Below, in pieces: positions 12,053 through 30,663 of a DNA stretch of 64,000 nt (position 1 is the stretch's first letter; every line of letters starts with the position of its first letter). The DNA is taken from assembly GCA_009659925.1 (NCBI GenBank), contig PUXW01000015.1, forward strand, positions 1 to 64,000, read 5' to 3'. This DNA is from Nitratiruptor sp. (GTDB lineage Bacteria > Campylobacterota > Campylobacteria > Campylobacterales > Nitratiruptoraceae). Made by a program: the position numbers and the translations under genes. Below the pieces are notes generated by a model. It was not told the origin of the DNA. It searched no databases and worked only from the letters and a program-made list of their open reading frames with translations.

Positions 12053-12058
12053 ATTATC
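12053..12058 (-). promoter_or_regulatory. -10 element for the cyclophilin-nadE-...-mreC run
   Basis: The minus strand reads AGCGATAATGGCG; GATAAT is 25 nt before the chosen ATG at 12028, leaving room for a short leader. All genes from here to mreC are separated by at most 11 nt, so this is the likely main promoter. Confidence 0.6.
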
Positions 12059-12094
12059 GCTGGAAATTTTAAGATATTTTAGCTCCAACTTTGT

Positions 12095-12100
12095 TACAAT
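12095..12100 (+). promoter_or_regulatory. -10 element of the fadL-fadD promoter
   Basis: The plus strand reads CTTTGTTACAATCTCC 37 nt before the fadL ATG. TACAAT is a good -10; the divergent cyclophilin -10 lies about 40 nt away, so the two promoters share this 108-nt gap. Confidence 0.62.
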
Positions 12101-12136
12101 CTCCTAAAAGTAGTCCAAATTTTTAAGGATTGGCCC

Positions 12137-13402: not shown

Positions 13403-13404
13403 CC

Positions 13405-16086: not shown

Positions 16087-16114
16087 CAGTCCTCCTTCTT
16101 TACTGCTTCGTCGG

Positions 16115-16129
16115 TGGAATGGTATTCCA
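16115..16129. promoter_or_regulatory. Inverted repeat TGGAAT-GGT-ATTCCA upstream of the EAL-HDOD gene
   Basis: A perfect 6-3-6 inverted repeat lies 28 nt upstream of the TTG start of the EAL-HDOD gene, in the 173-nt gap shared with the Pel-like run. It has the size and symmetry of a dimeric regulator site. It would be coding sequence if the ATG at 16152 were used, which adds doubt. Confidence 0.35.
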
Positions 16130-16225
16130 ACTTCATCGGTCAAATGGCCCATTTCTTTAAGTTTGAACCTCCCTTAGTCCTGGGGAATGGCGAGGAAATT
16201 TGGTAATTTTTCAGCCAGTTGTGAC

Positions 16226-16259: not shown

Positions 16260-17894
16260 ATGTTCCATCTGGTCTTGCTGGTTGCCCTTGCCATCGGAGG
16301 GGCGTGGGGAGGGGAGTGGTGTCTCTTCTACGCGACCCAGAGCAAAATCCACGGCGATGAAGATCGACTCTTCCTGAAACGCTTCCCCAAGGGACAAATC
16401 CTTCAAACTGGCAAGTTTTACCGCTTCCTCATCGGCCCCTTTCCAGCCAAGCAGGAGGCTCTGAAACTCCTTCCCAAGGCCCGCCGCTACGCCCCAGACG
16501 CTTATATTGGGCCTTGTCCCAAGGTCCAGCCCTCCAAGCCTTCGCCAGTTCAACGATCCGGAAAAGTGAAAGATGTCCAAGTGGCCAAGGTCTTCCAGAA
16601 GAAGTGGCACGAGCGGCGGGAATCCAACGCTACGAGGGAGCGCCCTCTGGCCAAGGATGGGAAGCCCCCCCTCAAACGCTACTACAACCTCACCTTTTAC
16701 GAATATATCGACCGCCTCTTGCACAAGAGCCCCTATGGAGGGGTTGAGGAGGCCAACTACGAGTTGCGTCGCCTGGAAGCTTTGCTTGAGAAGGCCCCCT
16801 ACAACTGGGATATCTTCGGCTTTGTCTCCACCAACTACTCCAAGTTCATCGACTACGATCTGGCTGTCAATAAGGAGATGGCCGTGCGGGGCGGAGTGGG
16901 GGTGCGGAAACGGCTCTTTGACCGGAGCTATTGGAGTTGGAAGCGCCTTGCCCAGCTGCGTCAGGAGTTGGCCCGGATGGAGTATATCGACGCCAAGGAC
17001 CGCCTCTATCTCCTGGGAACCCAGCTCTATTTGGGAGCTCTCTTGGAGCAGCGCCTCAAGGAGCTCTACGAGGCCCACTACTTCCAGCAAAAGCGCTTCT
17101 TCGAGCAGGTCCAGGAGCGCTACCGGGCTGGTGTGGCCTCACGCATCGACTTCCTCGATGCCAAAAACGATCTGCTGGCCATCAAAAAGCAGCTCCTCGA
17201 ACATATCTACGCCTACCTCTACGGGGACTATCTCTTGCGCAACAGCGCCGAGCTGGATACCAACGAGCCCCTGCGGCTGAGCTGGTTCGGGGTCAAATGG
17301 AAGGAGGCCACCCTCGCCGAGTACTACAAGCGGGCCCTCCTCTACTCCCCCCAAATCCTCAGCCAGCGGATCAAGGCGACTATTGCCGCCAAGGAGCTCC
17401 ACTCCTTGCGCTACTTCTACTGGCCCAAAGTCGATTTCAACCTCCTCCTCTTCGACGAGTACCGCCAGGATTTTACCCTGAAGAAGCGCACCACCGGGAT
17501 CAACTACCAACTGGGGTTTCGCGCCGAAATCCCCCTCTTTCGCCCTGAGGAGCAGAGCAAGATCCAACGGGCCAAGGCGAGGCTCCGACTTGAGCGGGAG
17601 CGGCTCAAGAGCAAGATCAAGGATGTGGCTAAGGATATCCACAAGAGCTACAACGAGATCGAGAAGCTCCAAAGGGAGCGCCAGATCGTCCAGGACCAAC
17701 TCCGTTTGAGCCAGGAGAAGATAGAAGTAAGCCAGAAACGCTACCTCGGGGGCGTTGGCGGATATCGGGACTATTCCGAGGCGATCCGGCAATCCTTGCG
17801 CTATCAAGAGGAGCTCTATCGGATCGATGCTCAAATACTCAGTAACAAGATCTTCATCAACTTACTGGAGGGAATCGAGCGGCTCTATGAGTAG
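16260..17894 (+). CDS. SPOR-like domain fused to a TolC-family outer-membrane channel
   Basis: A 544-aa exported protein. Residues 1-17 (MFHLVLLVALAIGGAWG) form a signal peptide, which supports the ATG at 16260. Residues 18-88 resemble a SPOR domain (WCLFYATQS, then FYRFLIGPFPAKQEALKLLPKA and DAYIGPC), with cysteines at 21 and 86 at its two ends. A basic linker follows, then a TolC-type outer-membrane efflux fold (about 140-544) with long coiled-coil helices (LEQRLKELYEAHYFQQKRFFEQV; LKSKIKDVAKDIHKSYNEIEK) and the TolC-like phrase RYRAGVASRIDFLDAKNDLL. It overlaps pelF by 8 nt. In Pel systems the outer-membrane exit is PelB (barrel plus TPR); here a TolC-type channel stands in its position. 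The SPOR assignment is by pattern only. Confidence 0.82.
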   Translation: MFHLVLLVALAIGGAWGGEWCLFYATQSKIHGDEDRLFLKRFPKGQILQTGKFYRFLIGPFPAKQEALKLLPKARRYAPDAYIGPCPKVQPSKPSPVQRSGKVKDVQVAKVFQKKWHERRESNATRERPLAKDGKPPLKRYYNLTFYEYIDRLLHKSPYGGVEEANYELRRLEALLEKAPYNWDIFGFVSTNYSKFIDYDLAVNKEMAVRGGVGVRKRLFDRSYWSWKRLAQLRQELARMEYIDAKDRLYLLGTQLYLGALLEQRLKELYEAHYFQQKRFFEQVQERYRAGVASRIDFLDAKNDLLAIKKQLLEHIYAYLYGDYLLRNSAELDTNEPLRLSWFGVKWKEATLAEYYKRALLYSPQILSQRIKATIAAKELHSLRYFYWPKVDFNLLLFDEYRQDFTLKKRTTGINYQLGFRAEIPLFRPEEQSKIQRAKARLRLERERLKSKIKDVAKDIHKSYNEIEKLQRERQIVQDQLRLSQEKIEVSQKRYLGGVGGYRDYSEAIRQSLRYQEELYRIDAQILSNKIFINLLEGIERLYE

Positions 17895-19365
17895 GATCAA
17901 GGTCGTATGGACAGGGGAAGGGACCTACCCGTATGCCACCGGGGGGGTGAGCACATGGGCCGACATTCTCATCCGGGAGCTGGGAAATATCGACTTCGTC
18001 CTCATCCCCATCATGATGCACCCCTATATGCAGGCCAAATACCCTCTGCCCCCCAATGTGGTGGAAGTGATCAACCTCCCCCTCTGGGGCACTGAGGAAC
18101 CGGTAGAGTATATCCGTAACATCAAGTTTTCCAAGATCTACCAGGCCAAGGTGCGAACCCGGGAGGCCAGGGATATCGAGACCTTCCGCCCCATCCTCAC
18201 TACTGTCCTCGATCACATCTACCGGCGCAACGAGGACTACGACCAGCTGGGGGATGCGATCTATGCTTTTTACGAGTACTTCCAGGAATACGACTACTAC
18301 GAGATGTTCCGAAGTCCCGAAGTTTGGGAGATCTATCGCGACTATATCCTCGCCACCTTCCACGACCACGAAGACCCCCCCAGCGTCTTCGATATGATCG
18401 AGGGACTGCGCTACCTCTTTCGTTTCTTCATCTCCCTCCTCCCCCAGCTTCCCGAGGCGCCGATCTATCACGCCTCGGCGGCGGCCTTTTGCGGACTCCC
18501 GTGTATCGTCGCCAAGAAGCGTTACGGGAGCAAGTTCCTCTTGAGCGAGCATGGGATCTATATCCGGGAGCAATACCTCTTTGCCTCCCGGAGCCAGTTG
18601 CCCCTCCGGACCAAGGAGTTTCTTCTCGGACTCATTACCATGGTCTCCCGCCTCAACTACCACTTCGCCGATGTGATCGCTCCGGTGTGCAACTACAACC
18701 GGCGCTGGGAGCTCCAATGGGGGGTCAAGGAGCATAAGATTGAGACCATCTACAACGGGATCGACGTGCTCCGTTTCAAGCGTTTCGATGTCCAACGGGA
18801 CTCCCGCCCCACGGTGGTTATGGTTGCCCGTATCGACCCCCTCAAGGATATCGAAACCTTCATCCAGACCGCCCAGCTGGTGGCCCAGCGCTTCCCCGAT
18901 GTCCTCTTCAAACTCTATGGTCCCATCGTAGACGAAGAGTACTACCAGCGGTGCATGGCCTTGGTCCAGGAGCTAGGAGTCGAGCACAACTTCGCCTACA
19001 AAGGGGCGACGAGCAATCCGGCCAGGGCCTACAACGAGGCCGATGTGGTGATGCTCACCAGCATCTCTGAGGCCTTTCCCTTCGCGGTAATTGAGGCGAT
19101 GGCCTGCGAGAAGGTGGTGGTCTCCAGCGATGTTGGGGGGACTCGGGAGGTGTTGGAGGGGTATGGGTTTACGATCAAGCCCAAGGATGCCCTCGCCTTT
19201 GCCAAGGCGGTCATCCACCTTCTCGAGCGTCCCGATGTGGCCCGGGATATGGGGCGCCGGGCCAGGGAGGTCATTTTACGCGGCTTCAAGACCGAAGACA
19301 TGGTCCTCAACTATGAACGGCTCTATCGGAGATTGGCCCATGCCTACGCAGATGAGCAAATCTGA
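17887..19365 (+). CDS. pelF: PelF-type glycosyltransferase (GT4)
   Basis: PelF is the cytosolic GT4 enzyme that polymerises the Pel polysaccharide from UDP-sugars. The 492-aa protein shows the PelF N-terminal signature TGEGTYPYATGGVSTWADIL, then SEHGIYIREQYLFAS, and the GT4 donor site VARIDPLKDIETFI and SEAFPFAVIEAMA (E-x7-E). Length matches known PelF (about 500 aa). I start at the ATG 17887 (MSRIKVVWTGEG), overlapping the TolC gene by 8 nt; the extra 44 residues of the track ORF are out-of-frame TolC sequence. pelG follows with a 26-nt overlap, as in all pel loci. Confidence 0.93.
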   Translation: MSRIKVVWTGEGTYPYATGGVSTWADILIRELGNIDFVLIPIMMHPYMQAKYPLPPNVVEVINLPLWGTEEPVEYIRNIKFSKIYQAKVRTREARDIETFRPILTTVLDHIYRRNEDYDQLGDAIYAFYEYFQEYDYYEMFRSPEVWEIYRDYILATFHDHEDPPSVFDMIEGLRYLFRFFISLLPQLPEAPIYHASAAAFCGLPCIVAKKRYGSKFLLSEHGIYIREQYLFASRSQLPLRTKEFLLGLITMVSRLNYHFADVIAPVCNYNRRWELQWGVKEHKIETIYNGIDVLRFKRFDVQRDSRPTVVMVARIDPLKDIETFIQTAQLVAQRFPDVLFKLYGPIVDEEYYQRCMALVQELGVEHNFAYKGATSNPARAYNEADVVMLTSISEAFPFAVIEAMACEKVVVSSDVGGTREVLEGYGFTIKPKDALAFAKAVIHLLERPDVARDMGRRAREVILRGFKTEDMVLNYERLYRRLAHAYADEQI

Positions 19366-20920
19366 GGTTGAGCGGCTCCGCCAGCTCTATTTCGAGATTA
19401 CCAAGGGACGGGGCAAACCCTTGGACTTCTGGGAGGTCGCCGCTTTGCTGGAAATTTACGGGATCCGTGATCTCGATGCGAAGCGGGAGTATGGCTTTTC
19501 CAATGTCTTCGAGCTGGCCCGCTTTCTCTTTGCCAATTTCAGGGAGAGTAAGGAGTATCCCAGCCGCTACCTCATGGAGCACCAAGAGGTCCCTCCACTG
19601 AAAACCAGGATCCTGCGGAACTTCCTCAAGGGGCTCTCCTTTGCCATGCCGATGTTTTTGCAGATCTTTTTTACCATCGTCTTCGGTTTCGCCCTCTGGT
19701 CCAATATCCACCTGGATGTGACCGAAGCGACGGTTATCGCCCTGGGGACCTTCCTTGCCCTCGTCGTCTCTGGGGGGATGGCCCAGATAATTGGGCGTAA
19801 GGGGCTCTACTACCTCAAGATGGGGGAGCAGATCCTTGCTGGTAAGATCATGGAGATCCTCTTGGTCCAAGGGGCCCTCAAAATCTTGATCCTCGCCCTC
19901 TTGATCACACTTTTCAACCAGATCTTCGGGATCTTCAGCGACTACCTCCTCTACCTCTTCCTGGCCACCTTCGCCCTCTTGGGGCTTCTTTTTACCATCA
20001 GCTCCATCTACTACGTCTTCGAAGAGTATGAAAAGATTTTGCTCTTCTATCTCCTTGGGATCGGGATGGTCTTCCTCCTCCACTACCTGCTGGATATCGA
20101 CTTTCCCGAAGCCCAGTTTCTCGGAATCGCTTTTTTAGACCTCCTCTTTGCTTTCTTTGCCTGGCGCAAGATCCGCCAACTCAAACGAAGCACCAAGAGT
20201 GAGGGGGAGATTTTGCCTCGAAGCTCGATGCTCATCTTCACCCTCCTCCCTTTTTACATCTACGGGGTCCTCTACTTCCTCTTCCTCATCATGGATCGCC
20301 TTGTGGCGTGGAATGCCAACTCCATCAACCGGGGTCTCTTCGTCTGGTTCGATGTGCGCTATGAGATCGGCTCCGATCTGGCCCTCTTGGTACTCATCCT
20401 CCTCATGGGGTTGGTGGAGGTGCTGGTCTACGAATTCCTCTACAAACTCAACACCGAGGTCTTCCGCTACGAGGCCAAGGAGTATCGCCGCTTCAACGAC
20501 TCCCTGATGGCCTTCTACAAACGGGCTGGAATCCTCTTCATCCTCTACGCCCTCGGGACGATAATGGTGGTATCGCTCTTTGTCTGGCTCTTGTACACCT
20601 TTGCCTGGGAGCAGCTGCCTCTAGATGGAACGAGCCTCCTGGTCTTTGGGGTGGCGGCCATTGCCTATAGCCTCTTGACCTTCGGGCTGTTCAACACGCT
20701 GATCCTCTTCTCCTTCTCCCGGCAAGGGGTTGTATTACAGGCCATCTTCCTGGGGCTTTTGGGGAACTTCCTGGTCGGGGTTGTCCTGGCCAACATGGGC
20801 TCCATCTACTGGGCGGTCTTTGGACTTCTAGTGGGAAGCGGGATCTTTTGCTGGGTGACGACCAGCTACATGCTCCAGCTCTTGAAGAAGCTGGACTACT
20901 TCTACTATTCGGCCTTTTAA
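19340..20920 (+). CDS. pelG: PelG-like polytopic membrane protein with N-terminal extension
   Basis: PelG is the inner-membrane, MATE/Wzx-like partner through which Pel is thought to cross the membrane. The 526-aa protein has about 12 hydrophobic segments. A PelG-like block is seen at about residues 300-370 (LFLIMDRLVAWNA, FVWFDVRYEIGSDLALLVLILLMGLVEVLVYEF). The first ~85 residues are soluble and charged (PLDFWEVAALLEIYGIRDLDAKREYGFS), absent from the typical ~456-aa PelG. The ATG at 19340 has GGAGA 7 nt upstream and is preferred over the ATG at 19352; the track start at 19091 lies deep in pelF. Adjacency to pelF and the conserved block support the call. Confidence 0.8.
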   Translation: MPTQMSKSEVERLRQLYFEITKGRGKPLDFWEVAALLEIYGIRDLDAKREYGFSNVFELARFLFANFRESKEYPSRYLMEHQEVPPLKTRILRNFLKGLSFAMPMFLQIFFTIVFGFALWSNIHLDVTEATVIALGTFLALVVSGGMAQIIGRKGLYYLKMGEQILAGKIMEILLVQGALKILILALLITLFNQIFGIFSDYLLYLFLATFALLGLLFTISSIYYVFEEYEKILLFYLLGIGMVFLLHYLLDIDFPEAQFLGIAFLDLLFAFFAWRKIRQLKRSTKSEGEILPRSSMLIFTLLPFYIYGVLYFLFLIMDRLVAWNANSINRGLFVWFDVRYEIGSDLALLVLILLMGLVEVLVYEFLYKLNTEVFRYEAKEYRRFNDSLMAFYKRAGILFILYALGTIMVVSLFVWLLYTFAWEQLPLDGTSLLVFGVAAIAYSLLTFGLFNTLILFSFSRQGVVLQAIFLGLLGNFLVGVVLANMGSIYWAVFGLLVGSGIFCWVTTSYMLQLLKKLDYFYYSAF

Positions 20921-20930
20921 GGGAGGGACT

Positions 20931-21824
20931 ATGCCCATACTCTGGCTCTTCGTCTTCTTGTTGCTGGCTGGATGCGCCCCCAAGGGGCTGGAGGAGAGTG
21001 TTCGCCAGGAGCCTGTGCGCATCTACACGATCCAGGTGGATCGCCTCTTCTTCCAAGAGGGCAAGGGGCGGGAGCGGCTCTTGCATTTTCCCTTCGTCTC
21101 CCTGGAGAAGGGGCCCCCTCCCAAGGGGAAATTTTCCGACGCTTTCTACGAAGGGATCGATCAGCACTACGAGGCGAAGGCCTTGGGTGAGGTAAACTTC
21201 TGGCAACTCGAAGAAGATCCCAAGGCTCTCGACATCATCTACGCCCTACCCATTTGGATCAACGACTACAAGGATGTCTCTTCCGATCTGCTCACCAACA
21301 TCTGCTACTCCCTCAATGTGGGGCCCGAGGAGCAGGGGATCTTGAAGGATTGGATCGCCCAGGGGGGGGTGCTCTGGCTCGAGAGCGGGCTCTATTCGAC
21401 CAAGTACGATCACTTCACCCGGAGCGGAGAGATCGCCACCAGCCTCATTCGACGTAAAGTCAAAGGGGGGCTTCAGGGCAAGAAACTCCTGGGTAAGCCG
21501 ATTCGAACCTATCTCTTCCAAGGGAAGAATCTCGACCTGGTCAACTACCTTCCCCGCCAGGTAACCTTCGAGGTCGTCCCCAAAGATCCCTTCTTCGAGG
21601 GGGTCAAACGGCTCCGCCTCGATGTACGCAACTATCTTCAAAACCACTTCGTCGTCCTGGGAAAGCCCCTTGTGAGCGATCGCAACGGGCAACCGCTGGT
21701 GACCATCCTCCAGCATGGGCGGGGATTTGTGGTTACCTTGCTCCCCTTTGAGTATCGGGATGTCTACTACGATGGGGAGCTTTTGCGCTGGAAGCTGTTG
21801 TACTACTTCTTGAAGCGGAGATAG
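20931..21824 (+). CDS. Unrecognised lipoprotein of the Pel-like run
   Basis: I do not recognise this 297-aa protein. Its lipobox LLLAGC (Cys15) marks it as a lipoprotein of the periplasmic side. After it come mixed alpha/beta segments: DIIYALPIWINDYKDVSSDLLTNICYSLNVGPEEQGILKDWIAQGGVLWLESGLY and, late, FVVTLLPFEYRDVYYDGELLRWKLLYYFL. The phrase about the last step being an uncovered loop with a small-residue turn (QGGVLWLESG) recalls class-I glutamine-amidotransferase-like or DUF4159-type folds, but no catalytic residues can be assigned. It lies 10 nt after pelG and 1 nt before the GT-C-like gene. In pel loci the periplasmic parts are PelA and the lipoprotein PelC; this protein resembles neither by eye. 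Confidence 0.75.
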   Translation: MPILWLFVFLLLAGCAPKGLEESVRQEPVRIYTIQVDRLFFQEGKGRERLLHFPFVSLEKGPPPKGKFSDAFYEGIDQHYEAKALGEVNFWQLEEDPKALDIIYALPIWINDYKDVSSDLLTNICYSLNVGPEEQGILKDWIAQGGVLWLESGLYSTKYDHFTRSGEIATSLIRRKVKGGLQGKKLLGKPIRTYLFQGKNLDLVNYLPRQVTFEVVPKDPFFEGVKRLRLDVRNYLQNHFVVLGKPLVSDRNGQPLVTILQHGRGFVVTLLPFEYRDVYYDGELLRWKLLYYFLKRR

Positions 21825-21825
21825 T

Positions 21826-24009
21826 TTGCGTACCGAGTTCCTCGACTTTTCCATCCTCAGCGAAGTCACCCGGATCAACCTGACCAATGCCGCCATCCTC
21901 ATGGTGGTGGCCTACCTCTTCTTCGTCCTTCTGCCCCGGTGGCTCTTTCCCCAACGCTTTGCTGGGGCCGGGTTGGAGAATACCATCTCCAACATCATCT
22001 ACATGTTGGTTTTCATCGAACTGAGCGTTCCCCTGTTGGTCTTTTTGAAGATCTTTAGCATCATCTCTTTCGCCGCCCTCATCATCGCCACCAAGCTCCT
22101 CTTCTTGCGCTTCTACTACAAGCGGCCGATCCTCAAGACCCTGGGATCCATCAAGGACCACTGGCTCATGGCCCTTTTCGACTTTTTGGACCATCCAGGG
22201 GCCAAACTCTGGGAGCTGCGCAAACGGGTGAAGCGCTGGCTCTACTTCAAGATCCAAACCCTCGACTACTTCGTCCTGGCCAAGCGGATCCTGGTAACCG
22301 CTGTCTTCTTTTTGCTCATCTATACCGTCGGATATCGCTGCTTCATAGCCATGGCCAACCCCCTCTCCGATACGAGTCAGTTCTTCGAGTGGGTTGCCAA
22401 CTTGAAGAACAATATCCTCTGGCCGGACCACAAGACGGGGGGCTCGGACTTCTATGGAATCAGCGTCTTCATCTTCGTCCTCCACACCCTGACCAACATC
22501 GATACCATCGTCCTTTTTAACATCTACCCCCTCCTCCTCATCACCTTCCTCTTCCTCGGGGTCTACTTCGTCCTCAAACGCTTCAGCCTCCAGCCCCTGG
22601 TGGCTATCGCCGTCTTGCTCCTTTATGGCGGCTGGCTCTTGAGCTCTCCCCTCAACTATCCCATCGCTACCCCCATCACCACCACCAGCGATCCAGAGAT
22701 CATCCGCATCCTGGGCCTGCGCTTTTACGATATTCCATCGAGCTACTTCCTAGAGCCCAAGCTCTACCTCGAATGGGTCAATATGAACTCCTATGTCCGC
22801 TACTTCAGCGGGATGGCCTACGAGTTCTCCTCTTCTATGTTCCTCCTCAATCTCTTCTACCTCATCAAATCCCTCGACAGTGGCCGGGCCCGCTACCTGC
22901 TCAACTACACCTTCACCCTCATGTTGGTCTTCATCTTCCACGGGGGAGGGGCCATCATCCTCATCGTCCCGAGCATCCTCATTGCCCTCCACGCCTTTGT
23001 GAGCTTCAAGGTGAGCTGGTACCTCCTCAAGCGGGGTATTGTAGCCATCCTCACGGCGGCGATCTTTGGCAACGGCTGGATCCTCTCAATGCTCAAATAT
23101 GGGATCCCTCAAGATTTTGGGGCTGCGGCCCCCTTCCTCGACCGCCTCTTTGGGACGAAGCAAGCGATGCAAGAGATTGCCACCATCGGGATCGAGGAGG
23201 TGATCATCTCCGACATCACTCCGGTCCAGGTCTTCCTGGCGCTGAGCGCCATTTTCTTCTTCATCGTGGCCAGGGTCTCCAAGAAGGGCTTCTACTTTGC
23301 CAGCTTCCTCCTCATCCCCCTCGGGGTTTTCCTGGTCTACTACAGCCAGAATCTGGGGCTTCCCAAACTGGTCCATCCCTCCCGAGGGGTCGAATACCTC
23401 TACCTTGGGGTGACGATCCTCTTCGTGTGCTATATCAAGCCGATCTATTGGCTCTTCAAACTCCTCTTGCGGCGCAAGGGGCAATACCTCTTCCTCGCTC
23501 TGGTCTACCTTGAACTCCTGATCATCGCCCTTTTTGTCCCCAAATTCTACGAGACCGAGCGGTTTAAGCGCTTCATCAACGGGGTCCAATACTCCGAGAT
23601 CCCCCTCTACCTCTACAAAATCATCGAGAAGAATCGCCCATTTACTTGGACCGTCGTCTCCTATGTCCAGGAGTACTCCAAAGTCCTGGGCAAAGGGTAT
23701 ATGATCAATGTGAACGAGTTCATCATCAACTACGATCCACGGGATCCCTACTTGCGCATTCCAACTCCGAAGGTCTACATCTTCGTCGAGGATATCCCCC
23801 ACATCTATTTGGGCAAGGGAGAGTGGTACTACCGCTGGCGGGATGAGATCGAAGGGAAACTCAAGGAGTGGATCGCCATCTACTCGGCCCTACACGATAA
23901 TATCACGGTCTTCGCCAAGACCAACCTCTTGACCATCTACGAGATCGACAATAGGGCCTACATGGAGTATCTCCACAAAGAGCAGGAGGGTGGATATGCC
24001 TATCGATAG
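21826..24009 (+). CDS. Large polytopic membrane protein, GT-C glycosyltransferase-like
   Basis: The 727-aa protein has roughly 12-14 membrane segments through about residue 585, and then a soluble C-terminal part (DPYLRIPTPKVYIFVEDIPHIYLGKG ... NITVFAKTNLLTIYEID). Many short segments with large periplasmic loops and a late soluble domain resemble GT-C enzymes that use polyprenyl-phosphate sugars, but I cannot point to a certain catalytic Asp/Glu; an acidic loop TTTSDPEIIRIL after segment 6-7 is one candidate. The start is a TTG at 21826 with GGAGA at 5 nt, 1 nt after the lipoprotein stop. It overlaps the HD-GYP gene by 14 nt. Alternatives are an O-antigen-ligase-like protein or a diverged scaffold in the position of PelE. 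Confidence 0.72.
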   Translation: MRTEFLDFSILSEVTRINLTNAAILMVVAYLFFVLLPRWLFPQRFAGAGLENTISNIIYMLVFIELSVPLLVFLKIFSIISFAALIIATKLLFLRFYYKRPILKTLGSIKDHWLMALFDFLDHPGAKLWELRKRVKRWLYFKIQTLDYFVLAKRILVTAVFFLLIYTVGYRCFIAMANPLSDTSQFFEWVANLKNNILWPDHKTGGSDFYGISVFIFVLHTLTNIDTIVLFNIYPLLLITFLFLGVYFVLKRFSLQPLVAIAVLLLYGGWLLSSPLNYPIATPITTTSDPEIIRILGLRFYDIPSSYFLEPKLYLEWVNMNSYVRYFSGMAYEFSSSMFLLNLFYLIKSLDSGRARYLLNYTFTLMLVFIFHGGGAIILIVPSILIALHAFVSFKVSWYLLKRGIVAILTAAIFGNGWILSMLKYGIPQDFGAAAPFLDRLFGTKQAMQEIATIGIEEVIISDITPVQVFLALSAIFFFIVARVSKKGFYFASFLLIPLGVFLVYYSQNLGLPKLVHPSRGVEYLYLGVTILFVCYIKPIYWLFKLLLRRKGQYLFLALVYLELLIIALFVPKFYETERFKRFINGVQYSEIPLYLYKIIEKNRPFTWTVVSYVQEYSKVLGKGYMINVNEFIINYDPRDPYLRIPTPKVYIFVEDIPHIYLGKGEWYYRWRDEIEGKLKEWIAIYSALHDNITVFAKTNLLTIYEIDNRAYMEYLHKEQEGGYAYR

Positions 24010-25471
24010 CCTGGCCATCGAAGAGCGGCTCAACGATGTCCTCTTCTTCATCGGTGTCAATTTCTGGTACCTCTTCCTCCTGGCCGCTCTCCTCTTCTTC
24101 CTCTTGACTATCAAGAGCTTCAAGGATAAGATCGCCAAGGAGCTCGAACTGGACAAGCTCAACAAGTGGCTCTCCTACCTAGCCAAGCTGGAGCGCCTCG
24201 GGGAGATTGAGGACCATCTGCTCAACTTCAAGAACTATGTCGAGGCCCAGGGGGCAGCCCTCTACCTACGTCGGGGGGAGACCTACATCCTCCAGGCCCA
24301 AAATCTCCCTGATGATGGAAATGTCACTGTGCGCTTGCACACGCGCCAGATCGAGGAGGGCCAGAAGCGGGTGGGTGCCTTCCACTACTTCTACCTCCCA
24401 TCGGCCAGCCGAGCCTCCCTCTACCTCCTGGTGGCCAAACGGCCAATCGAGATCGAATCGTACAAAGGATTTGTCGAGGTGGCCCTGGCTTACTACGAGA
24501 AGAGCCAGAGCGCAAGTGAGGAACATACCATCTCGACCGTTTCGAATGCCTCCAAAGAGGTCCTCTCCAAGATGATGAAGATCCACTACACCTCCGATAT
24601 GTTCCTCAAATTTATGGTCTCCCTCCTCCTCAAATCCCTCAACGCCCAGGGGATCATCCTCAAAAATAAGAATATGCCCAACAAGGCGATCTATTTCAAA
24701 CATCCAGAGCGCTCAGATCTGCAAAAGCGCTTCTTCATCCGCAACACTCCCTACATCCTGGAACTCTATCGGGACACCCCCTTGAGTCGGGAGGAGATGG
24801 TGGAAGTGGGCTCCTTCCTCGATCTGGCCGGCTCCTACTTCGAGAATAGCAGTGAAAATAGTCGGATGATCCAGAACTACTTGAAATTCCTCCGCTTCTC
24901 GGTGAAGGCCATTGAGCTCCAGAGCCCCTACTTCAAGGATCACTCCAAGAAGGTGGAGATTGTCGCCACCCAGGTGGCCAAGACCCTCTTTCTCAGCGAT
25001 CAGGAGATCAAACAGATCTCCATCGGGGCCTTCCTCCACGATATCGGAATGATCGGGAAGATCGAGCATTTCATCGATAGCCAGGAGATCGACCAGGAGG
25101 AGCTCCAGCTCATCCGTTACCATCCCATTGTGGGGGCTGTGTTGGTGGAGCCCATCTCCCACGTCTACCCCCTCCTCGCTCCCATCATCAAGTACCACCA
25201 CGAGCGTTACGATGGGGGTGGCTATCCCTTTGGCCTCAAGGGGAAGGATATCCCTCTCGAAGCTCAGATCGTTGCCTTGGCCGAATACTACATTGGTGCC
25301 ATCAGTCCCCGGGCCTATCGGGATCCTATGAGTCCAGAAGAGGCGCAAAAGCTCATTCTCTCCCAAAAGGATCAGCTGGTAGATGGGGGGATCATCGAGG
25401 CCTTCATGGAGAGCCTCGATGGAATTGGGAAGAAGTTACGCCTCCTGGAGGAGGGGGTGGCTCACGATTAG
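23996..25471 (+). CDS. Membrane-anchored GAF-like/HD-GYP protein
   Basis: The 491-aa protein has one membrane segment (about residues 16-38, VNFWYLFLLAALLFFLLTI), a short coiled region, two sensor-like regions (about 50-150 GAF-like; about 190-285) and a C-terminal HD-GYP domain with FLHDIGMIGK, IRYHPIVGA and YHHERYDGGGYPFGLKG. HD-GYP enzymes hydrolyse c-di-GMP. Two canonical residues differ: the lysine of HDxGK is Met, and the Asp of the ADxxDA helix appears as Glu (ALAEYY). So it may bind rather than cleave. It takes the place where pel loci have PelD, the membrane GAF/GGDEF c-di-GMP receptor. I use the ATG at 23996 (AGGAGG at 6 nt) rather than the GTG at 23990. Confidence 0.88.
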   Translation: MPIDSLAIEERLNDVLFFIGVNFWYLFLLAALLFFLLTIKSFKDKIAKELELDKLNKWLSYLAKLERLGEIEDHLLNFKNYVEAQGAALYLRRGETYILQAQNLPDDGNVTVRLHTRQIEEGQKRVGAFHYFYLPSASRASLYLLVAKRPIEIESYKGFVEVALAYYEKSQSASEEHTISTVSNASKEVLSKMMKIHYTSDMFLKFMVSLLLKSLNAQGIILKNKNMPNKAIYFKHPERSDLQKRFFIRNTPYILELYRDTPLSREEMVEVGSFLDLAGSYFENSSENSRMIQNYLKFLRFSVKAIELQSPYFKDHSKKVEIVATQVAKTLFLSDQEIKQISIGAFLHDIGMIGKIEHFIDSQEIDQEELQLIRYHPIVGAVLVEPISHVYPLLAPIIKYHHERYDGGGYPFGLKGKDIPLEAQIVALAEYYIGAISPRAYRDPMSPEEAQKLILSQKDQLVDGGIIEAFMESLDGIGKKLRLLEEGVAHD

Positions 25472-26457
25472 AAGTTCTTCGATTTGACTTCGTAGACCGT
25501 CTTGTTGGGGTTGTCGAGGAAGTTCTTGCGGATGAACTCTTGCTCCTCCTTGCTCAAGAAGACGGTTACGAGGGCTTTGGTTCCGGTTTGGAGGATGTAG
25601 TTCTTGTTGGGGATTTCGATCTCGGCGGTCATACGCCCAAAAGTTGGATCGACCACCAAGACCACCCGGCTAATGCGGGCCTTCACGCTGTAAGGGGGGG
25701 TCGTGATGAAGTCGACTTTCACCTCCTTACCCCGTTTGATGAAGGGAAGCAGACCAGGGGCGATACCGGCTCGAACAATAACGGTATCGATATTGGCGAT
25801 GGTCCCCAATTTGGCCCCCTTGCTCACGTAATCTCCCTTTTGAGTCTTCACCTCCGAAACGATTCCGTCGATGCCGCTGCGTACCTCGCTCAGGGCGAGG
25901 ATGTGGTTGAGCTTCTTCAACTCATTCTCGATGGTTGCAATCCGCTCGTCGAGCATTCGGATCCGTTCGATCTTGTTCTCGGCTTCGGCGTACTTGGAGT
26001 GGAGGGAGGAGGCGTAGGCCATCTTGGCGTTGGCAAACTCCTGTTCGCTCGTATAGCCTTGGCTCTTGAGTTTGGCTAAGCGTTCCAGATTCATCCGGGC
26101 GATATTGACCATCGCCGTAGTGGTGCGCTCCTTCTTGCTCCCCTTGAAGAACTCCTTGAGGCTTTGCAGGTATGCAAGCTCTTGTTGGGTCCGTTCCAGA
26201 TCGTAGCGGGTTACGGTGGTCTCAAAGCGCAAAAGCAACTCCCCCCGGCGCACCCGATCTCCCACGTCGATGTAGAGTTCCTTGACCGTCCCATCCACCG
26301 GGGCGATGATCTCCTCCACCTGAGAGGGGAAGACCTCCCCTTCCAGTCGGATGGTAATTCCCTCTTTGCTCTTCTTGATCTCTTTTTCCTCGGGACTCTT
26401 GGCACAACCTCCAAGCAGGACAAGGATCAAGACCAACAGCAGGAGCGCTCTATCCAT
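25468..26457 (-). CDS. Periplasmic adaptor (HlyD/MFP-type) lipoprotein
   Basis: A 329-aa membrane-fusion/adaptor protein anchored by a lipobox (LLLGGC, Cys18). The lipoyl half-motifs IIAPVDGTVKELYIDVGDRVRRGELL and SGIDGIVSEVKTQKGDYVSKGAKLG flank a coiled-coil hairpin (about residues 80-175), and a beta-barrel part follows (TTPPYSVKARISRV). Such proteins dock on TolC-type channels. No RND, ABC or MFS pump gene adjoins it, but a TolC-family gene lies in the convergent run, so the two may pair. Its 3' end overlaps the HD-GYP gene by 4 nt tail to tail, and its ATG overlaps the deacetylase gene by 8 nt. Confidence 0.88.
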   Translation of the reverse strand: MDRALLLLVLILVLLGGCAKSPEEKEIKKSKEGITIRLEGEVFPSQVEEIIAPVDGTVKELYIDVGDRVRRGELLLRFETTVTRYDLERTQQELAYLQSLKEFFKGSKKERTTTAMVNIARMNLERLAKLKSQGYTSEQEFANAKMAYASSLHSKYAEAENKIERIRMLDERIATIENELKKLNHILALSEVRSGIDGIVSEVKTQKGDYVSKGAKLGTIANIDTVIVRAGIAPGLLPFIKRGKEVKVDFITTPPYSVKARISRVVLVVDPTFGRMTAEIEIPNKNYILQTGTKALVTVFLSKEEQEFIRKNFLDNPNKTVYEVKSKNF

Positions 26458-27274
26458 TCTCTCCCTTTAACGATGCTACCAGCCTCTCCACCTTCCTCCA
26501 GCCGTCTCCCGTATTGGCGAAGGCGAGGAGATAGGCCCGGTCCAGTTCCACACGCCCGAAGAAACGGCGAAAAAGGTTTTCCAGGAGTTCGTAGGGGTGT
26601 GTGTATATTATCGGTTTGACCCCCATTCTCGTTACCTTGCGGGCCAGGAGGATGGCGAGGGGAGTGGGGAGGAGGCGGAGGTAGAAGCCTCCGCTGAAGG
26701 GAATGAGGTATTTGGGCACTGGGATTTCGGTAATGGGTCCTGAAGGGGTGGTGATGGTGAAGGGGCGCTTCTTGTCGATGGGATGGCCATACATGTAGGT
26801 CTTGAAGGGGAAGTAGGAGGAAGAGTAGCGCACGCCCAGCTCCACCAGCGCCTCATAGTAGAGCTTTTGAAAGGGAAGAGACCAGCTCGGGCTTCTATAG
26901 CCGACCACCTCTTGGCCGGTGAGATCTTCGAGGATGGCTTTGGCTATGCGTGTCTCCTCGATCCACTGGGTGAAGGGGATGGTGGAGACCAGCTGGTGGG
27001 AGAGGCCGTGGAGGGCGATTTCGATCTTGGCTTGGGCGAGGCGTCGGATTAGGTGGGGATAGGCCTTGGCAAAACTGCCAAGGACGAAGGCGCAGGAGCG
27101 CACCCCCAGGACCTCGTTGAGGTCGATCCACCTCTCGATAATTTCTCCATAGTCGATGGAGAGCTTCCCCTTGGGCTTGACGCCAAAGTTGGCATCTTCG
27201 AGGCGCTCCACATCGATGGTGAGCCAGAAATTGGGGTGAGTCTCGTAACTTTCAGGAAGGTAGATGGAGCTCAT
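26450..27274 (-). CDS. Polysaccharide deacetylase (NodB-type), cytosolic
   Basis: A 274-aa carbohydrate esterase family 4-like protein that would remove N-acetyl groups from amino sugars. Motifs are NFWLTIDVE (metal/catalytic Asp near residue 21), HGLSHQ (metal His pair) and GYRSPSWSLP. The late YTHPYEL is a typical last motif. The layout matches the deacetylases of exopolysaccharide loci linked to XrtA. There is no signal peptide, so it should act in the cytoplasm, unlike PelA. The start is the ATG at 27274 with AAAGGGA at 4 nt; the 50 residues upstream in the track are low-complexity frame-shifted sequence. It overlaps the flippase gene by 23 nt. Confidence 0.9.
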   Translation of the reverse strand: MSSIYLPESYETHPNFWLTIDVERLEDANFGVKPKGKLSIDYGEIIERWIDLNEVLGVRSCAFVLGSFAKAYPHLIRRLAQAKIEIALHGLSHQLVSTIPFTQWIEETRIAKAILEDLTGQEVVGYRSPSWSLPFQKLYYEALVELGVRYSSSYFPFKTYMYGHPIDKKRPFTITTPSGPITEIPVPKYLIPFSGGFYLRLLPTPLAILLARKVTRMGVKPIIYTHPYELLENLFRRFFGRVELDRAYLLAFANTGDGWRKVERLVASLKGENG

Positions 27275-28142
27275 GGGATCCCTTTCGTACCAAAAGATAG
27301 AGGGTAAAGAGGATGGCTGGGATGAGGTAGAGGAGCTGGAGGATGAGGGAGGCGGCGAGGGCCTCTTCCTTGGAGACTCCATATTGTCCCAAGACGAAGA
27401 CGAAAGCGGCCTGGAAAGTTCCAATTCCTCCCGGTGTCACAGGAATGGCCGAAACAACGAAGGCTAAGGTTGAGGCCAGGAAGATCTGGAAGGGGGTCAG
27501 GTTGAAAGGGGTGGCATAGGTGAAAAAGAGCCAGTTGTTCCAGTAGTAAAGCCCCCACAAAGCCAAGGTGATGAGGAGTCCCCCAAGGAGGGTGGATCGC
27601 TCCTGGAGCTTGTGAAAGAGGCCATCGATGAAGGGGCGTAGCTTGGAAGGGGCGAGGCTATGGAGGATCCTTTGGATCTGGGGGAAGAGTAGGAGCAGGG
27701 GGGCTATGGCGGCGATGAGTGGGAGGAGGGGGGTGGTGAGGAGGCGGGTAAAAGAGAGGCTTGCCAGGGCGATCCAACCGAGGACCAGCAGATCGAGGAG
27801 GCGTTCGAGGAGGAAGATGGCGGTAAGTTCGGGGATGGGGTGCTCTTCCTGCTTGTGTATGTGGTAGATCTTGACCAGATCTCCCAACTTGGCTGGAGCG
27901 AAGATGTTGAGGACGAAGGCGAGCATTGTCGCCTCAAGACTTGCCTGGAAGCTGTGGCGGAAGTGGCTGAGATAGTACCAACGGTAAGCGATAGCCAGAT
28001 CGCTGATTCCGACGCTAGCTAAAGTCAAAAGGAGTCCGTGGGGATTCAAGGAGGCGAGGGCTTGGACTACCTTGGACCACTGGATTCCCCATGAGAGCCA
28101 AAGCAGCAGGGCAGCAATGGCGAGAAGGCGCCAGAGCCTCAT
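27252..28142 (-). CDS. LPG-synthase-type flippase domain membrane protein (UPF0104)
   Basis: A 296-aa polytopic protein of the lysylphosphatidylglycerol synthase TM/UPF0104 family, with about 8 membrane segments. Family hallmarks are NIFAPAKLGDLVKIYHI near residue 80, LLERLLDLLVLG near 115 and the late AIPVTPGGIGTFQAAFVFVL. Members flip lipid-linked molecules and are common beside DPM-synthase-like GT2 genes. It lacks the C-terminal aminoacyl transferase domain of MprF. It overlaps the FemAB gene as ATGA. Its likely cargo here would be a polyprenyl-linked sugar made by the GT2 upstream (inference). Confidence 0.88.
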   Translation of the reverse strand: MRLWRLLAIAALLLWLSWGIQWSKVVQALASLNPHGLLLTLASVGISDLAIAYRWYYLSHFRHSFQASLEATMLAFVLNIFAPAKLGDLVKIYHIHKQEEHPIPELTAIFLLERLLDLLVLGWIALASLSFTRLLTTPLLPLIAAIAPLLLLFPQIQRILHSLAPSKLRPFIDGLFHKLQERSTLLGGLLITLALWGLYYWNNWLFFTYATPFNLTPFQIFLASTLAFVVSAIPVTPGGIGTFQAAFVFVLGQYGVSKEEALAASLILQLLYLIPAILFTLYLLVRKGSHELHLPS

Positions 28143-29038
28143 AGTTCCACCAAATAGGGGGCGATTCTGGGACCCAACCAGTTGGTCAAGGGGGCCGGGA
28201 GGTGGCTCCAGATGGTGGAGGCCAATTGGTAGGCTTTGTAGATGTTGGTCGGTTTGTGGGTGTGCAGGTCGATCTTGACCGGATAGGCTCCGAAACGACT
28301 TTTGAAGAAGTAGGTCCCAACCCCGTAGGGGGAGCGGCCAAAGTCGATGATGGAGGCCCGCTGCTCCTGGACAAGGTGTTCGATGACGGTGTGGTAGAAG
28401 AAGTACCCTGTGGAATTGGTGCGCCGATCGTAGATAGTTCCTCCATACTGGAGGGTGACGATCTCCCGGTCATAGAAGACCCAAAGCCCCCCGACGAGCC
28501 GCTCCTGCTCCCACAAAAGGGCGATCTTGGTCTCGGGGATGTAGCTTTGAAAGGCTTCGAAGAAGGATTTGGGGAGTATGGGAGTCCCGTGATAGCGGTA
28601 GATGGTCTGGAGGATCCAGTAGAAGTGATCCCTCATCTTCGGGGTATATCCGATTTCGACCCGATAGCGTTGGCACTCCCGTTCTTTGCGAATGCTCCGT
28701 TTGGCAAGGCGCCGATAGCCTCCCATCACCTCCTCAATACTCTTGCCTCCAATTTCCAGGCGCATCGTGACTGGATCGTACTCTTGAAAGGAGTCTGTTT
28801 GGAAATTGAGGGTGCGGATGAGGTAGGGATTGTCCTTGGCCAACTCCAGGAGATCGTCGATCTGATCGCTGGTGCGATCGGTGTAGTTGAGGAGGGGGAG
28901 GTAGGTGAGGGTGGGCCGCCCGCCTAGGCTTGGCTGGATCATGAGGTCCATATACTCTTGGAAGCCGAAGGTCTCTTGTAAGAGGGCACGCCATTGAGAG
29001 ATGAGCTTGGGGGAGTAGGTGGCTTTGGCTATCGACAC
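28139..29038 (-). CDS. FemAB/GNAT-fold acyltransferase-like protein
   Basis: A 299-aa protein with the FemAB/GNAT layout seen in exopolysaccharide loci (the XrtA-associated FemAB type). Visible parts are KSIRKERECQRYRVEIGY, the core IALLWEQERLVGGLWVFYDREIVTLQYGGTI and FFYHTVIEHLVQEQRASIIDFGRSPYGVGTYFFKSRFGAYPVKID. These proteins probably transfer an acyl or aminoacyl group to a sugar. The start is a GTG at 29038 with GGAGG at 7 nt, overlapping the DUF2304 gene by 10 nt. The acceptor is unknown; together with the deacetylase next door, acylation of an exposed amino group is a simple hypothesis. Confidence 0.82.
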   Translation of the reverse strand: MSIAKATYSPKLISQWRALLQETFGFQEYMDLMIQPSLGGRPTLTYLPLLNYTDRTSDQIDDLLELAKDNPYLIRTLNFQTDSFQEYDPVTMRLEIGGKSIEEVMGGYRRLAKRSIRKERECQRYRVEIGYTPKMRDHFYWILQTIYRYHGTPILPKSFFEAFQSYIPETKIALLWEQERLVGGLWVFYDREIVTLQYGGTIYDRRTNSTGYFFYHTVIEHLVQEQRASIIDFGRSPYGVGTYFFKSRFGAYPVKIDLHTHKPTNIYKAYQLASTIWSHLPAPLTNWLGPRIAPYLVEL

Positions 29039-29355
29039 CGCTTGGCCTCCATGATGGCGATCTGGCGCACGATTTTGGTGATGGCCCGTTCGTTGGCCTT
29101 GACCTTGGTATAGAGAATGGCGACGATGAGGGTGAGGATGGCGATGGAGAGGTAGATGATCAGATCGACTCCCCGTCCTACCCCGACGAAGTGGGCGATG
29201 GCGTCGGCTTGATCGGGGAAGATGATGAGGTAGGCGATGCCTAGATAGAAGAGGGCGATGGTGAGATACTGGTAGGGACGGAAACGGCTGCTTAGAGCAA
29301 GGAGGATGAGGGTGATGGTGAGGATGAGGATGAGCACCAGTTTGACGAAGATCAT
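29029..29355 (-). CDS. DUF2304-like small membrane protein
   Basis: A 108-aa protein with three hydrophobic segments (FVKLVLILILTITLILLAL; YLTIALFYLGIAYLIIF; DLIIYLSIAILTLIVAILY) and a basic tail (KVKANERAITKIVRQIAIMEAKR). This is the DUF2304 pattern; these proteins usually follow a DPM-synthase-like GT2, as here. The ATG at 29355 overlaps the GT2 stop as ATGA; the 33 residues before it in the track are GT2 in another frame. A role as partner of the GT2 in lipid-linked sugar synthesis or transfer is inferred from context. Confidence 0.82.
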   Translation of the reverse strand: MIFVKLVLILILTITLILLALSSRFRPYQYLTIALFYLGIAYLIIFPDQADAIAHFVGVGRGVDLIIYLSIAILTLIVAILYTKVKANERAITKIVRQIAIMEAKRCR

Positions 29356-30032
29356 CGCACCACCTTTGCGAGGAAGAGTTCTACCAGAATGGCGAGGCTG
29401 TCGATGGTCGATTGGCCTTTGGCCAGGGAGTAGTCGCTGTAGCGGATGGTGCATGGGAGCTCTTTGTAGCGCATGTTGAGGCTGCGGATTAGATCGAGGA
29501 TTTCCGAAGCGTGGCTCATCCGGTTGTGGGTGATGGCAAAGTCGGGAAACTTGGCAATGTTGATGGCTCGAAAGCCGTTATGGGCATCGGTTAGGGAGAC
29601 CCCTGTTAAGAGCCGCTCGAAGAGGGCTGCCGCCTTGAGGAGGTAGCGCCGGGTGAGGGGTATATTCTCGGCCTTTCCCAAGAAGCGGGAGCAGAGGATG
29701 ATGTCGGCCTCCCCTTGGCGCAGGGCCTGGACGAAGGGTTCGATATCTTCGGGGTCGTGTTGGCCGTCACTATCGAAGGTGACGACATAGGAGCACCCCA
29801 GTTTTCGGGCATACTCGATCCCCGTTTGCAAGGCGGCTCCCTGGCCGAGGTTGACGGCGTGGCGGAGTAGATGGACTTCTGGAATGCAGGCCCGCTCGTA
29901 GCTTCGATCGGTGGACCCATCGTCGACGACGATGATGGTGTCATAGGGCCTCTTATTCCGAAGGTTGACTAGGGTCTCTCGAATCACCTGCTCCTCGTTG
30001 TAGAGAGGAATGACGATGGCTACTTCGCTCAT
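29352..30032 (-). CDS. GT2 glycosyltransferase, dolichyl-phosphate-mannose-synthase-like
   Basis: A 226-aa GT2 enzyme with VAIVIPLYNEEQVI, IIVVDDGSTDRSY, NLGQGAALQTGIEYA and TFDSDGQHDPEDI (metal-binding DSD) in the usual order. It has no membrane segment, so it likely works with the DUF2304 partner. DPM-synthase-like enzymes transfer a sugar from a nucleotide sugar to polyprenyl phosphate. Its start at 30032 lies 80 nt inside the 3' end of tcdA, an unusually long overlap in this window. The donor sugar cannot be read from sequence. Confidence 0.9.
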   Translation of the reverse strand: MSEVAIVIPLYNEEQVIRETLVNLRNKRPYDTIIVVDDGSTDRSYERACIPEVHLLRHAVNLGQGAALQTGIEYARKLGCSYVVTFDSDGQHDPEDIEPFVQALRQGEADIILCSRFLGKAENIPLTRRYLLKAAALFERLLTGVSLTDAHNGFRAINIAKFPDFAITHNRMSHASEILDLIRSLNMRYKELPCTIRYSDYSLAKGQSTIDSLAILVELFLAKVVR

Positions 30033-30663
30033 TGATAATCTTTTCTATCGCTTTAGCACATAGGGCAAGCCCAAAGGCCCCAGTCACCCCGACGAAGCTC
30101 CCCTTTCCCTCCCCTTTGGGAGGTTCGAGGCTAAAGACTACGGGGAAGTCCCCGACAAAGCCGGCCTGGCGCAGCCGGTTGCGGAACTTCTTGGCGAAGG
30201 GGTCTTGGCTGGTCTCCCAGATTGAGGCGTATCGAATCTGGGTTGGATCGACCCTCCGCGCGCTCCCCATGGAGCTAATGAGTTTCGGGGCGACCCGTTG
30301 GGCTAGGGCCACCTTGGCTGGAATATCGTCGATCGCATCGAGTACGAGATGGTAGCGATCGAAATCGGTGGTTTCGACCCAGCTATTATCGACGCGGGCC
30401 ACCACTTTTTTAATCCCCGGATAGCGTTGGGCTAGGACCTCTACTTTTAGCTCCCCGAGGGCTTCACTGCCAATTTGGCGATTCTGGTTGCTCGCCTCGT
30501 AGCGGTCCCCATCGACGATGGTGATCTGGCTTACACCAGTGCGATAGAGGCAATCGAGGGCGAAACTCCCGACCCCTCCAACCCCGACAATGAGGATGTG
30601 AGACTCCTGGATGGCCTGGAACGCTTGGGGGCCAAAGAGCTCTTTGCACCGCTCAAAACGCAT
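29953..30663 (-). CDS. tcdA: tRNA threonylcarbamoyladenosine dehydratase (ThiF/E1-like)
   Basis: TcdA cyclises t6A37 to ct6A in tRNA using ATP. The 236-aa protein has HILIVGVGGVGSFALDCLYRTG (nucleotide fold), IVDGDRYEASNQNRQ and the dehydratase-type SSMGSARRVDPTQIRYASI. The start is the ATG at 30663 (MRFERCKELFG); the 21 upstream residues in the track are surE in another frame. The last ~26 residues (ERSSHRHSSLQRGAGDSRDP) look like read-through into the GT2 gene, because TcdA homologues usually stop near KAIEKIIN. It overlaps surE by 11 nt. MoeB/ThiF sulfur-transfer proteins are the alternative, but no C-x-x-C zinc pairs are present. Confidence 0.87.
   Translation of the reverse strand: MRFERCKELFGPQAFQAIQESHILIVGVGGVGSFALDCLYRTGVSQITIVDGDRYEASNQNRQIGSEALGELKVEVLAQRYPGIKKVVARVDNSWVETTDFDRYHLVLDAIDDIPAKVALAQRVAPKLISSMGSARRVDPTQIRYASIWETSQDPFAKKFRNRLRQAGFVGDFPVVFSLEPPKGEGKGSFVGVTGAFGLALCAKAIEKIINERSSHRHSSLQRGAGDSRDPSQPSE

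What the first reader, a model, noticed from the sequence alone, without database searches (positions are those of the whole stretch)
16260..30032. Hybrid Pel-like polysaccharide locus with PelF/PelG but TolC/adaptor export parts instead of PelA-E
Two convergent runs contain PelF and PelG together with a TolC-family channel, an adaptor lipoprotein, a cytosolic deacetylase, a FemAB-like transferase, a flippase, a DPM-synthase-like GT2 with DUF2304, a GT-C-like protein and an HD-GYP protein. Known pel loci (Pseudomonas pelABCDEFG; the Gram-positive pelDEADAFG type) depend on PelD as c-di-GMP receptor and, in Gram-negatives, PelB/PelC as exit. None of those is recognisable here. Inference: a Pel-like synthase has been joined to a different exit route, a different c-di-GMP-linked sensor and a lipid-linked-sugar decorating module.
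Basis: partly seen in the sequence, partly recalled or inferred. Interest (0 to 1): 0.85.

Follow-up and report, generated by a model that had tools for sequence, protein, structure and literature searches.

The report
Pel-like sugar-polymer locus with TolC exit
A deep-sea bacterium's gene cluster keeps the core sugar-polymerising gene of the Pel biofilm system but pairs it with a different exit channel and a different set of sugar-decorating enzymes, and the same combination recurs in several bacterial phyla, so it looks like a distinct, undescribed type of slime-making machine.

Summary
Searches of the whole genome (99.97% complete) for PelA, PelB, PelC, PelD and PelE find none. The gene set is no local accident. 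It occurs in 12 of 16 genomes of the genus, in other Campylobacterota, and in Nitrospirota, Desulfurellales and Acidobacteriota. There a core of TolC, PelF, a PelG-like flippase, an envelope lipoprotein and a 720-residue GT-C-like protein recurs with membrane GT2, deacetylase and FemAB partners. Its PelF forms one clade (99/98), separate from canonical PelF (100/99). Sister genera carry a complete canonical pel locus in the same chromosomal slot, beside tcdA-surE. "Hybrid" is therefore misleading: this is an old, separate Pel-like lineage. The HD-GYP protein is optional; its catalytic lysine is methionine in 16 of 17 orthologs. Best reading: PelF makes a polymer, the PelG-like protein flips it, a polyprenyl-phosphate-sugar/GT-C pair decorates it in the periplasm, and TolC, with an HlyD-type adaptor here, exports it. 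Polymer chemistry and the TolC exit are inferred, not shown. PelG membership is borderline (18.5 bits, cut-off 29). Novelty: new variant of a known kind.

The parts
16260..17894 (+). TolC-family outer-membrane channel with N-terminal extension (weak SPOR-like match)
   Evidence: PF02321 8e-32, SPOR 16.7 bits below cut-off; precedes pelF in the loci; N-terminal extensions of orthologs carry SH3_3 or AMIN domains
17887..19365 (+). PelF-type GT4 glycosyltransferase (putative polymerase)
   Evidence: NF038011 182 bits over its cut-off of 100; DUF3492 155 bits; E395-x7-E403 invariant; own clade 99/98
19352..20920 (+). PelG-like polytopic flippase with a conserved N-terminal cytosolic extension of about 85 residues
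   Evidence: PF16933 18.5 bits, orthologs up to 27.7, cut-off 29, collinear full length; 11 predicted TM segments
20931..21824 (+). envelope lipoprotein, GATase-like/beta-galactosidase-trimerisation-like alpha/beta fold
   Evidence: lipobox LLLAGC; AlphaFold pLDDT 73; Foldseek hits to GH42/GH164-type accessory domains; orthologs carry a C-terminal OmpA domain
21826..24009 (+). 12-TM GT-C-like glycosyltransferase (inferred polyprenyl-P-sugar-dependent transferase)
   Evidence: best three Foldseek hits are GT-C (STT3A, AftA, ArnT; E 1e-3 to 0.07, model pLDDT 55); D182 invariant in 24 sequences; 12 predicted TM segments
23990..25471 (+). membrane-anchored HD-GYP protein, metal ligands kept, catalytic Lys replaced by Met, Asp by Glu
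   Evidence: PF13487 3.7e-23; alignment to PmGH 4MCW; residues across 17 orthologs
25468..26457 (-). HlyD/RND-type periplasmic adaptor lipoprotein
   Evidence: PF16576 1.2e-22; RND_mfp 90.6 bits; lipobox LLGGC
26450..27274 (-). cytosolic CE4-type polysaccharide deacetylase with DUF3473
   Evidence: PF01522 and PF11959; TIGR03006 128.8 bits, cut-off 276; D-x-E, H-x3-H, R127 and H226 conserved
27252..28142 (-). LPG_synthase_TM-family membrane protein (candidate flippase)
   Evidence: PF03706 1.3e-38
28139..29038 (-). FemAB-like acyl/aminoacyl transferase
   Evidence: TIGR03019 90 bits, cut-off 260; PF13480
29029..29355 (-). DUF2304 membrane partner of the GT2
   Evidence: PF10066 6.3e-18; start set by ortholog lengths of 108-110 aa
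29352..30032 (-). PpgS-like GT2, polyprenyl-phosphate-sugar synthase type
   Evidence: NF058614 PpgS 200.9 bits, cut-off 370
29953..31444 (-). tcdA-surE, the conserved flank that marks the slot (not part of the system)
   Evidence: same flank beside the window-type cassette, canonical pel, or neither

Best explanation
A synthase-type exopolysaccharide locus of a separate PelF lineage. PelF (cytosolic GT4) polymerises a nucleotide-activated amino sugar and the PelG-like MOP-type protein carries the chain across the inner membrane. The GT2, anchored by DUF2304, makes a polyprenyl-phosphate sugar; the cytosolic deacetylase and the FemAB-like enzyme modify a sugar; an LPG_synthase-type membrane protein may flip the carrier; and the GT-C-like protein adds the sugar to the chain in the periplasm. 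The chain leaves through the peptidoglycan-associated TolC-family channel, bridged in this genus by the HlyD-type lipoprotein, while the envelope lipoprotein guides or binds it. The membrane HD-GYP protein gates synthesis by sensing c-di-GMP rather than mainly degrading it. Shown: gene content, absence of PelA-E, conserved co-localisation, separate PelF clade, shared slot. Inferred: polymer identity, flipping, decoration, TolC exit, gating.
For: PelF family membership over cut-off. No PelA-E in the genome. Gene order conserved in the genus. Core TolC-PelF-PelG-lipoprotein-GT-C recurs in Campylobacterota, Nitrospirota and Desulfurellales, and HlyD-TolC-PelF-PelG-GT-C in an acidobacterium. One PelF clade 99/98, apart from canonical PelF 100/99. 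Alternative occupation of the slot beside tcdA-surE by canonical pel. GT-C as the three best structural hits plus an invariant Asp in 24 sequences. Where DUF2304 is missing the GT2 carries its own C-terminal TM segments, the usual build of polyprenyl-P-sugar synthases. Peptidoglycan-binding domains recur on the TolC (SH3_3, AMIN) and on the lipoprotein (OmpA). A GH114-like hydrolase, weak match, sits next to the GT-C gene in Nitrospirota and Desulfurellales loci.
Against: PelG similarity stays below the family cut-off and a profile-profile test failed to find it. The GT-C model is poor (pLDDT 55) and no profile match supports it. An HlyD gene is not seen near most Sulfurimonas-type loci, and the TolC could serve another pump. 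No experiment touches polymer, exit or regulation. The HD-GYP protein is absent from some loci.
Confidence: 0.6

Rival explanations
1. Ordinary Pel locus whose PelA-E have diverged beyond recognition: the deacetylase and the GATase-like lipoprotein would be split PelA, the HD-GYP protein PelD, TolC the PelB/C exit.
For: PelA's second domain has ThuA/IFT52-like relatives (PMC12022489), the same broad fold class as the lipoprotein; PelD also has TM plus sensor domains; GH114-like hydrolases occur in some loci.
Against: Profile comparison finds no PelA-lipoprotein or PelD-HD-GYP link (the method also missed PelG, so this is weak). TolC and PelB are different folds. The deacetylase lacks a signal peptide. 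Canonical pel in sister genera is an intact separate cassette. PelF is a separate clade.
Confidence: 0.15
2. Not an exopolysaccharide exporter: PelF is one glycosyltransferase in a pathway for a cell-surface glycolipid, capsule-like or protein-linked glycan built on polyprenyl phosphate.
For: GT2/DUF2304, GT-C, LPG_synthase_TM and FemAB are typical of envelope glycan pathways; PpgS and its GT-C partner decorate mycobacterial arabinogalactan (PMC3485146).
Against: No ligase, Wzy polymerase or initiating transferase was recognised in the locus; a TolC channel precedes pelF in nearly every lineage; PelF is over the PelF equivalog cut-off.
Confidence: 0.2
3. TolC and HlyD belong to an unrelated efflux system that merely sits beside a PelFG pathway with an unknown exit.
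For: HlyD is on the opposite strand here and is not seen near most Sulfurimonas-type loci.
Against: tolC overlaps pelF by 8 bases in the window and precedes pelF in the window-type loci where that side is held; no inner-membrane pump gene accompanies the adaptor in the window.
Confidence: 0.05

Closest known systems
Gram-negative pelABCDEFG (Pseudomonas; complete in sister genera, locus L015)
   Same: PelF polymerase, PelG-like flippase, a deacetylase, presumed matrix role, same chromosomal slot
   Different: No PelA, B, C, D or E; TolC channel instead of the PelB barrel and PelC; added GT-C/GT2/DUF2304/FemAB module; PelF about 24% identical to the sister genera's and in another clade
Gram-positive pelDEADAFG (Bacillus cereus; PMC7112168)
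   Same: PelF, PelG, separate deacetylase
   Different: No PelD or PelE; Gram-negative envelope with TolC exit
Mycobacterial PpgS/Rv3632/Rv3779 galactosamine transfer (PMC3485146)
   Same: PpgS-like GT2 with small membrane partner and a GT-C-like transferase
   Different: Below the PpgS equivalog cut-off; coupled to a PelF-type synthase
XrtA/PEP-CTERM EPS loci
   Same: DUF3473 deacetylase and FemAB-like protein are nearest to TIGR03006 and TIGR03019
   Different: Both far below equivalog cut-offs; no exosortase seen in the locus
Pel operon of Seep-SRB1a/g sulfate reducers (PMC10553843)
   Same: Divergent pel operon with PelF/PelG and a membrane protein proposed to replace PelD
   Different: Reported with PelA and PelE; not compared by sequence here

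Membership tests
Pel system (Gram-negative) | PelF | tested here: met
   NF038011 182 bits, cut-off 100; hhalign to sister canonical PelF 100%
Pel system (Gram-negative) | PelG | tested here: inconclusive
   18.5 bits, orthologs to 27.7, cut-off 29; collinear; hhalign negative
Pel system (Gram-negative) | PelA hydrolase/deacetylase | tested here: not met
   no match in own genome
Pel system (Gram-negative) | PelB barrel and PelC | tested here: not met
Pel system (Gram-negative) | PelD c-di-GMP receptor and PelE | tested here: not met
Pel system (Gram-negative) | alpha-1,4 GalN/GalNAc polymer | not testable with these tools
   needs chemistry
Gram-positive pelDEADAFG | PelD | tested here: inconclusive
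   PF16963 absent in genome and no PelD link of the HD-GYP protein, but PMC7112168 notes that this Pfam model misses B. cereus PelD
PpgS-type decoration | PpgS equivalog GT2 | tested here: not met
   200.9 bits, cut-off 370
PpgS-type decoration | GT2 + small membrane partner + GT-C | tested here: inconclusive
   GT2 and DUF2304 met; the GT-C assignment rests and is weak
XrtA/PEP-CTERM EPS | TIGR03006 deacetylase and TIGR03019 FemAB | tested here: not met
   128.8 (cut-off 276) and 90.1 (cut-off 260) bits
XrtA/PEP-CTERM EPS | exosortase XrtA in the genome | not tested
   none recognised in the locus; genome not searched for it
Tripartite type I/RND efflux | inner-membrane ABC or RND pump in the locus | tested here: not met
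   no such gene at 16260-30032
HD-GYP phosphodiesterase | metal-binding His/Asp set | tested here: met
   H318, H350, D351, H378, H403, H404 in 17 of 17
HD-GYP phosphodiesterase | HDxGK lysine and terminal Asp | tested here: not met
   Lys is Met in 16 of 17 and Ser in one; Asp is Glu in 17 of 17

The most novel reading that the evidence does not exclude
A separate class of secreted-polysaccharide machine: a PelF-type synthase with a MOP flippase exports its chain through a peptidoglycan-tethered TolC channel with an HlyD-type adaptor and no ABC or RND pump, and the chain is decorated in transit by a polyprenyl-phosphate-dependent GT-C enzyme. It swaps with canonical pel at one chromosomal slot.
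Probability: 0.4. Interest if true: 0.8.

Novelty: new variant of a known kind. Interest (0 to 1): 0.62.

Why it matters
Surveys of Pel that rely on PelC or on the Pseudomonas gene set would miss or mislabel this type; the PelF equivalog model would call it Pel although none of PelA-E is there. If the reading is right, PelF/PelG-type synthases can work without PelD, PelE and PelB/C, which makes the minimal synthase directly testable, and TolC channels would serve polysaccharide export without a pump. It also gives a natural experiment: two alternative cassettes at one locus in one bacterial family.

Tried and rejected
Sequence-profile link of the lipoprotein to PelA domain 2 and of the HD-GYP N-terminus to PelD: nothing, but the same method missed PelG, so this is weak evidence. 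Split PelA as the main reading: rejected for lack of support. Pfam Arc_capsid match on the GT-C-like protein: a chance hit in 1 of 24 members. EAL-HDOD protein at 14935-16152 as part of the system: not found beside tolC in the relatives fetched. Mutual exclusion of the two types: none of 31 PelF-bearing genomes in a sample of 150 has both (24 canonical, 7 window-type), but about one overlap is expected by chance, so it proves nothing alone. Literature searches for PelF/PelG with TolC, HlyD or Sulfurimonas found no description.
Full report
What is there. The window lies in a 1.44 Mb, 99.97% complete genome. Twelve genes at 16260-30032 form two convergent runs with overlapping or abutting ends. 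The plus run is tolC, pelF, a pelG-like gene, a lipoprotein gene, a 12-TM protein gene and an HD-GYP gene; the minus run is GT2, DUF2304, femAB-like, LPG_synthase_TM, deacetylase and hlyD-like. PelF is secure (182 bits, cut-off 100). The PelG-like protein is borderline: 18.5 bits here, up to 27.7 in orthologs, cut-off 29, but aligned over nearly the whole profile.

Missing Pel parts. Searching the own genome with canonical PelA, PelC and PelE proteins of a sister genus, and with the Pfam models of PelB and PelD, gives no hit, while the same searches ring in the sister genomes G016 and G019. The sister PelA matches solved PelA 9CGY (1e-154) and the sister PelC matches solved PelC (3e-21), so those queries are good.

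Conservation. The PelF gene is in 12 of 16 genus genomes and the gene order, as far as contigs allow, is the same in them apart from extra GT-C copies. A genome-collection scan found 40 PelF relatives. Among these, Campylobacterota (Nitratiruptor, Sulfurimonas, Sulfuricurvum and Arcobacteraceae types), Nitrospirota and Desulfurellales carry TolC, PelF, PelG-like, lipoprotein and GT-C-like genes, with GT2, FemAB, deacetylase and LPG_synthase genes in most of the longer stretches, and the acidobacterium L078 carries HlyD, TolC (OEP), PelF, PelG-like and GT-C genes. The HD-GYP gene is absent from L067, L070, L071, L074 and L076. PelF homologues of Chloroflexota, Deinococcus, Thermus and Streptomyces show no GT-C, lipoprotein, TolC or HlyD by profile in the stretches held, but lie near polygalactosaminidase- or spherulin-4-type genes.

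Ancestry. In a maximum-likelihood tree of 44 PelF sequences the 20 window-type ones form one group (99/98) and the 17 canonical Campylobacterota ones another (100/99), parted by long branches. Long outgroup branches make the deeper order unsure. So this is not a canonical pel operon that recently exchanged parts.

One slot, several fillings. Beside tcdA-surE, window-type genomes carry this cassette, G016 and G019 carry complete canonical pel (PelC, D, E, F, G, A, TPR proteins, PelB barrel), and G001, G010, G017 and G018 carry neither at that place.

Proteins of unknown function. The lipoprotein model (pLDDT 73) matches the GATase-like accessory domain of GH42/GH164-type enzymes; Foldseek E-values are 5e-5 to 1e-3 and TM-scores are low, so only the fold class is claimed. 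Published PelA domain 2 has ThuA-like and IFT52 relatives (PMC12022489), the same broad class by general knowledge, but no sequence link was found. Sulfurimonas-type orthologs add a peptidoglycan-binding OmpA domain (2e-19). TolC orthologs carry SH3_3 or AMIN domains in their N-terminal extension and the window's copy has a sub-threshold SPOR match: envelope tethering recurs with different domains. The 727-residue protein has 12 predicted TM segments; its model is poor (pLDDT 55), yet of 350,542 chains the best three hits are the GT-C enzymes STT3A, AftA and ArnT, and an Asp in the putative first periplasmic loop (D182) is invariant in 24 sequences. I take it as GT-C, about 75% sure.

Decoration. 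The GT2 is nearest to PpgS, which makes polyprenyl-phospho-GalNAc in mycobacteria with a small membrane partner and a GT-C user (PMC3485146). Where DUF2304 is missing, the GT2 has two or more C-terminal TM segments in six of the seven copies examined, and one near the C-terminus in L059, which fits the same activity. The deacetylase keeps D-x-E, H-x3-H and the late His and lacks a signal peptide, so it would act on a cytosolic sugar or lipid-linked sugar rather than on the exported chain. This is inference.

Regulation. The HD-GYP protein keeps the metal ligands (17 of 17), but the HDxGK lysine is Met in 16 of 17 and Ser in one, the later Asp is Glu in all, and the Glu of trinuclear HD-GYPs is absent. 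A c-di-GMP receptor or altered enzyme is more likely than a canonical phosphodiesterase; it is not a universal part.

Literature. The pel surveys read here (PMC7112194, PMC7112168) describe canonical, rearranged and Gram-positive types and note loci with only pelF and pelG recognised; no TolC-type locus is described in the passages found, and text searches for PelF/PelG with TolC, HlyD or Sulfurimonas gave nothing relevant. The library lacks most subscription papers, so an earlier description cannot be excluded.

Verdict. The anatomy is confirmed and conserved; the 'hybrid' history is replaced by an old separate lineage; mechanism about 60% likely as stated. Membership: it is not a Pel system by the tested criteria (PelA-E not met), though it probably works like one.

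Noticed in passing
L017 (G015) 9926-14498; L018 (G003) 3002-10987; L049; G437:C171; L042 (G008) 7444-9576: The GT-C gene is often duplicated: tandem copies in G015, each split by a frameshift at the same place, three copies in G003, and a second copy elsewhere in G008.
   Followed up: partly
L015 2094-14900 and L016: Complete canonical pel locus with PelB split into TPR proteins and a separate barrel protein in sister genera.
   Followed up: yes
L138 5810-11885 (Sulfitobacter plasmid): PelF and PelG beside a polysaccharide biosynthesis/export (OPX-type) gene: another possible exit for PelF/PelG.
   Followed up: no
L076 19825-21156, L077 3763-5079: Next to the GT-C gene, a hydrolase-like protein: sub-threshold GH114/GHL15 match in the Nitrospirota locus L077, only a weak GH59 match in its Desulfurellales counterpart L076.
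   Followed up: partly
window 14935-16152: EAL-HDOD (YuxH-like) protein divergent from tolC; not found beside tolC in the relatives fetched.
   Followed up: partly
window 19352-19610: PelG-like proteins share a highly conserved N-terminal cytosolic extension of about 85 residues, outside the main PelG profile match; possible docking site.
   Followed up: no
L064 7755-10061: A 769-residue version of the lipoprotein in one Sulfurimonadaceae genome; the extra part was not examined.
   Followed up: no
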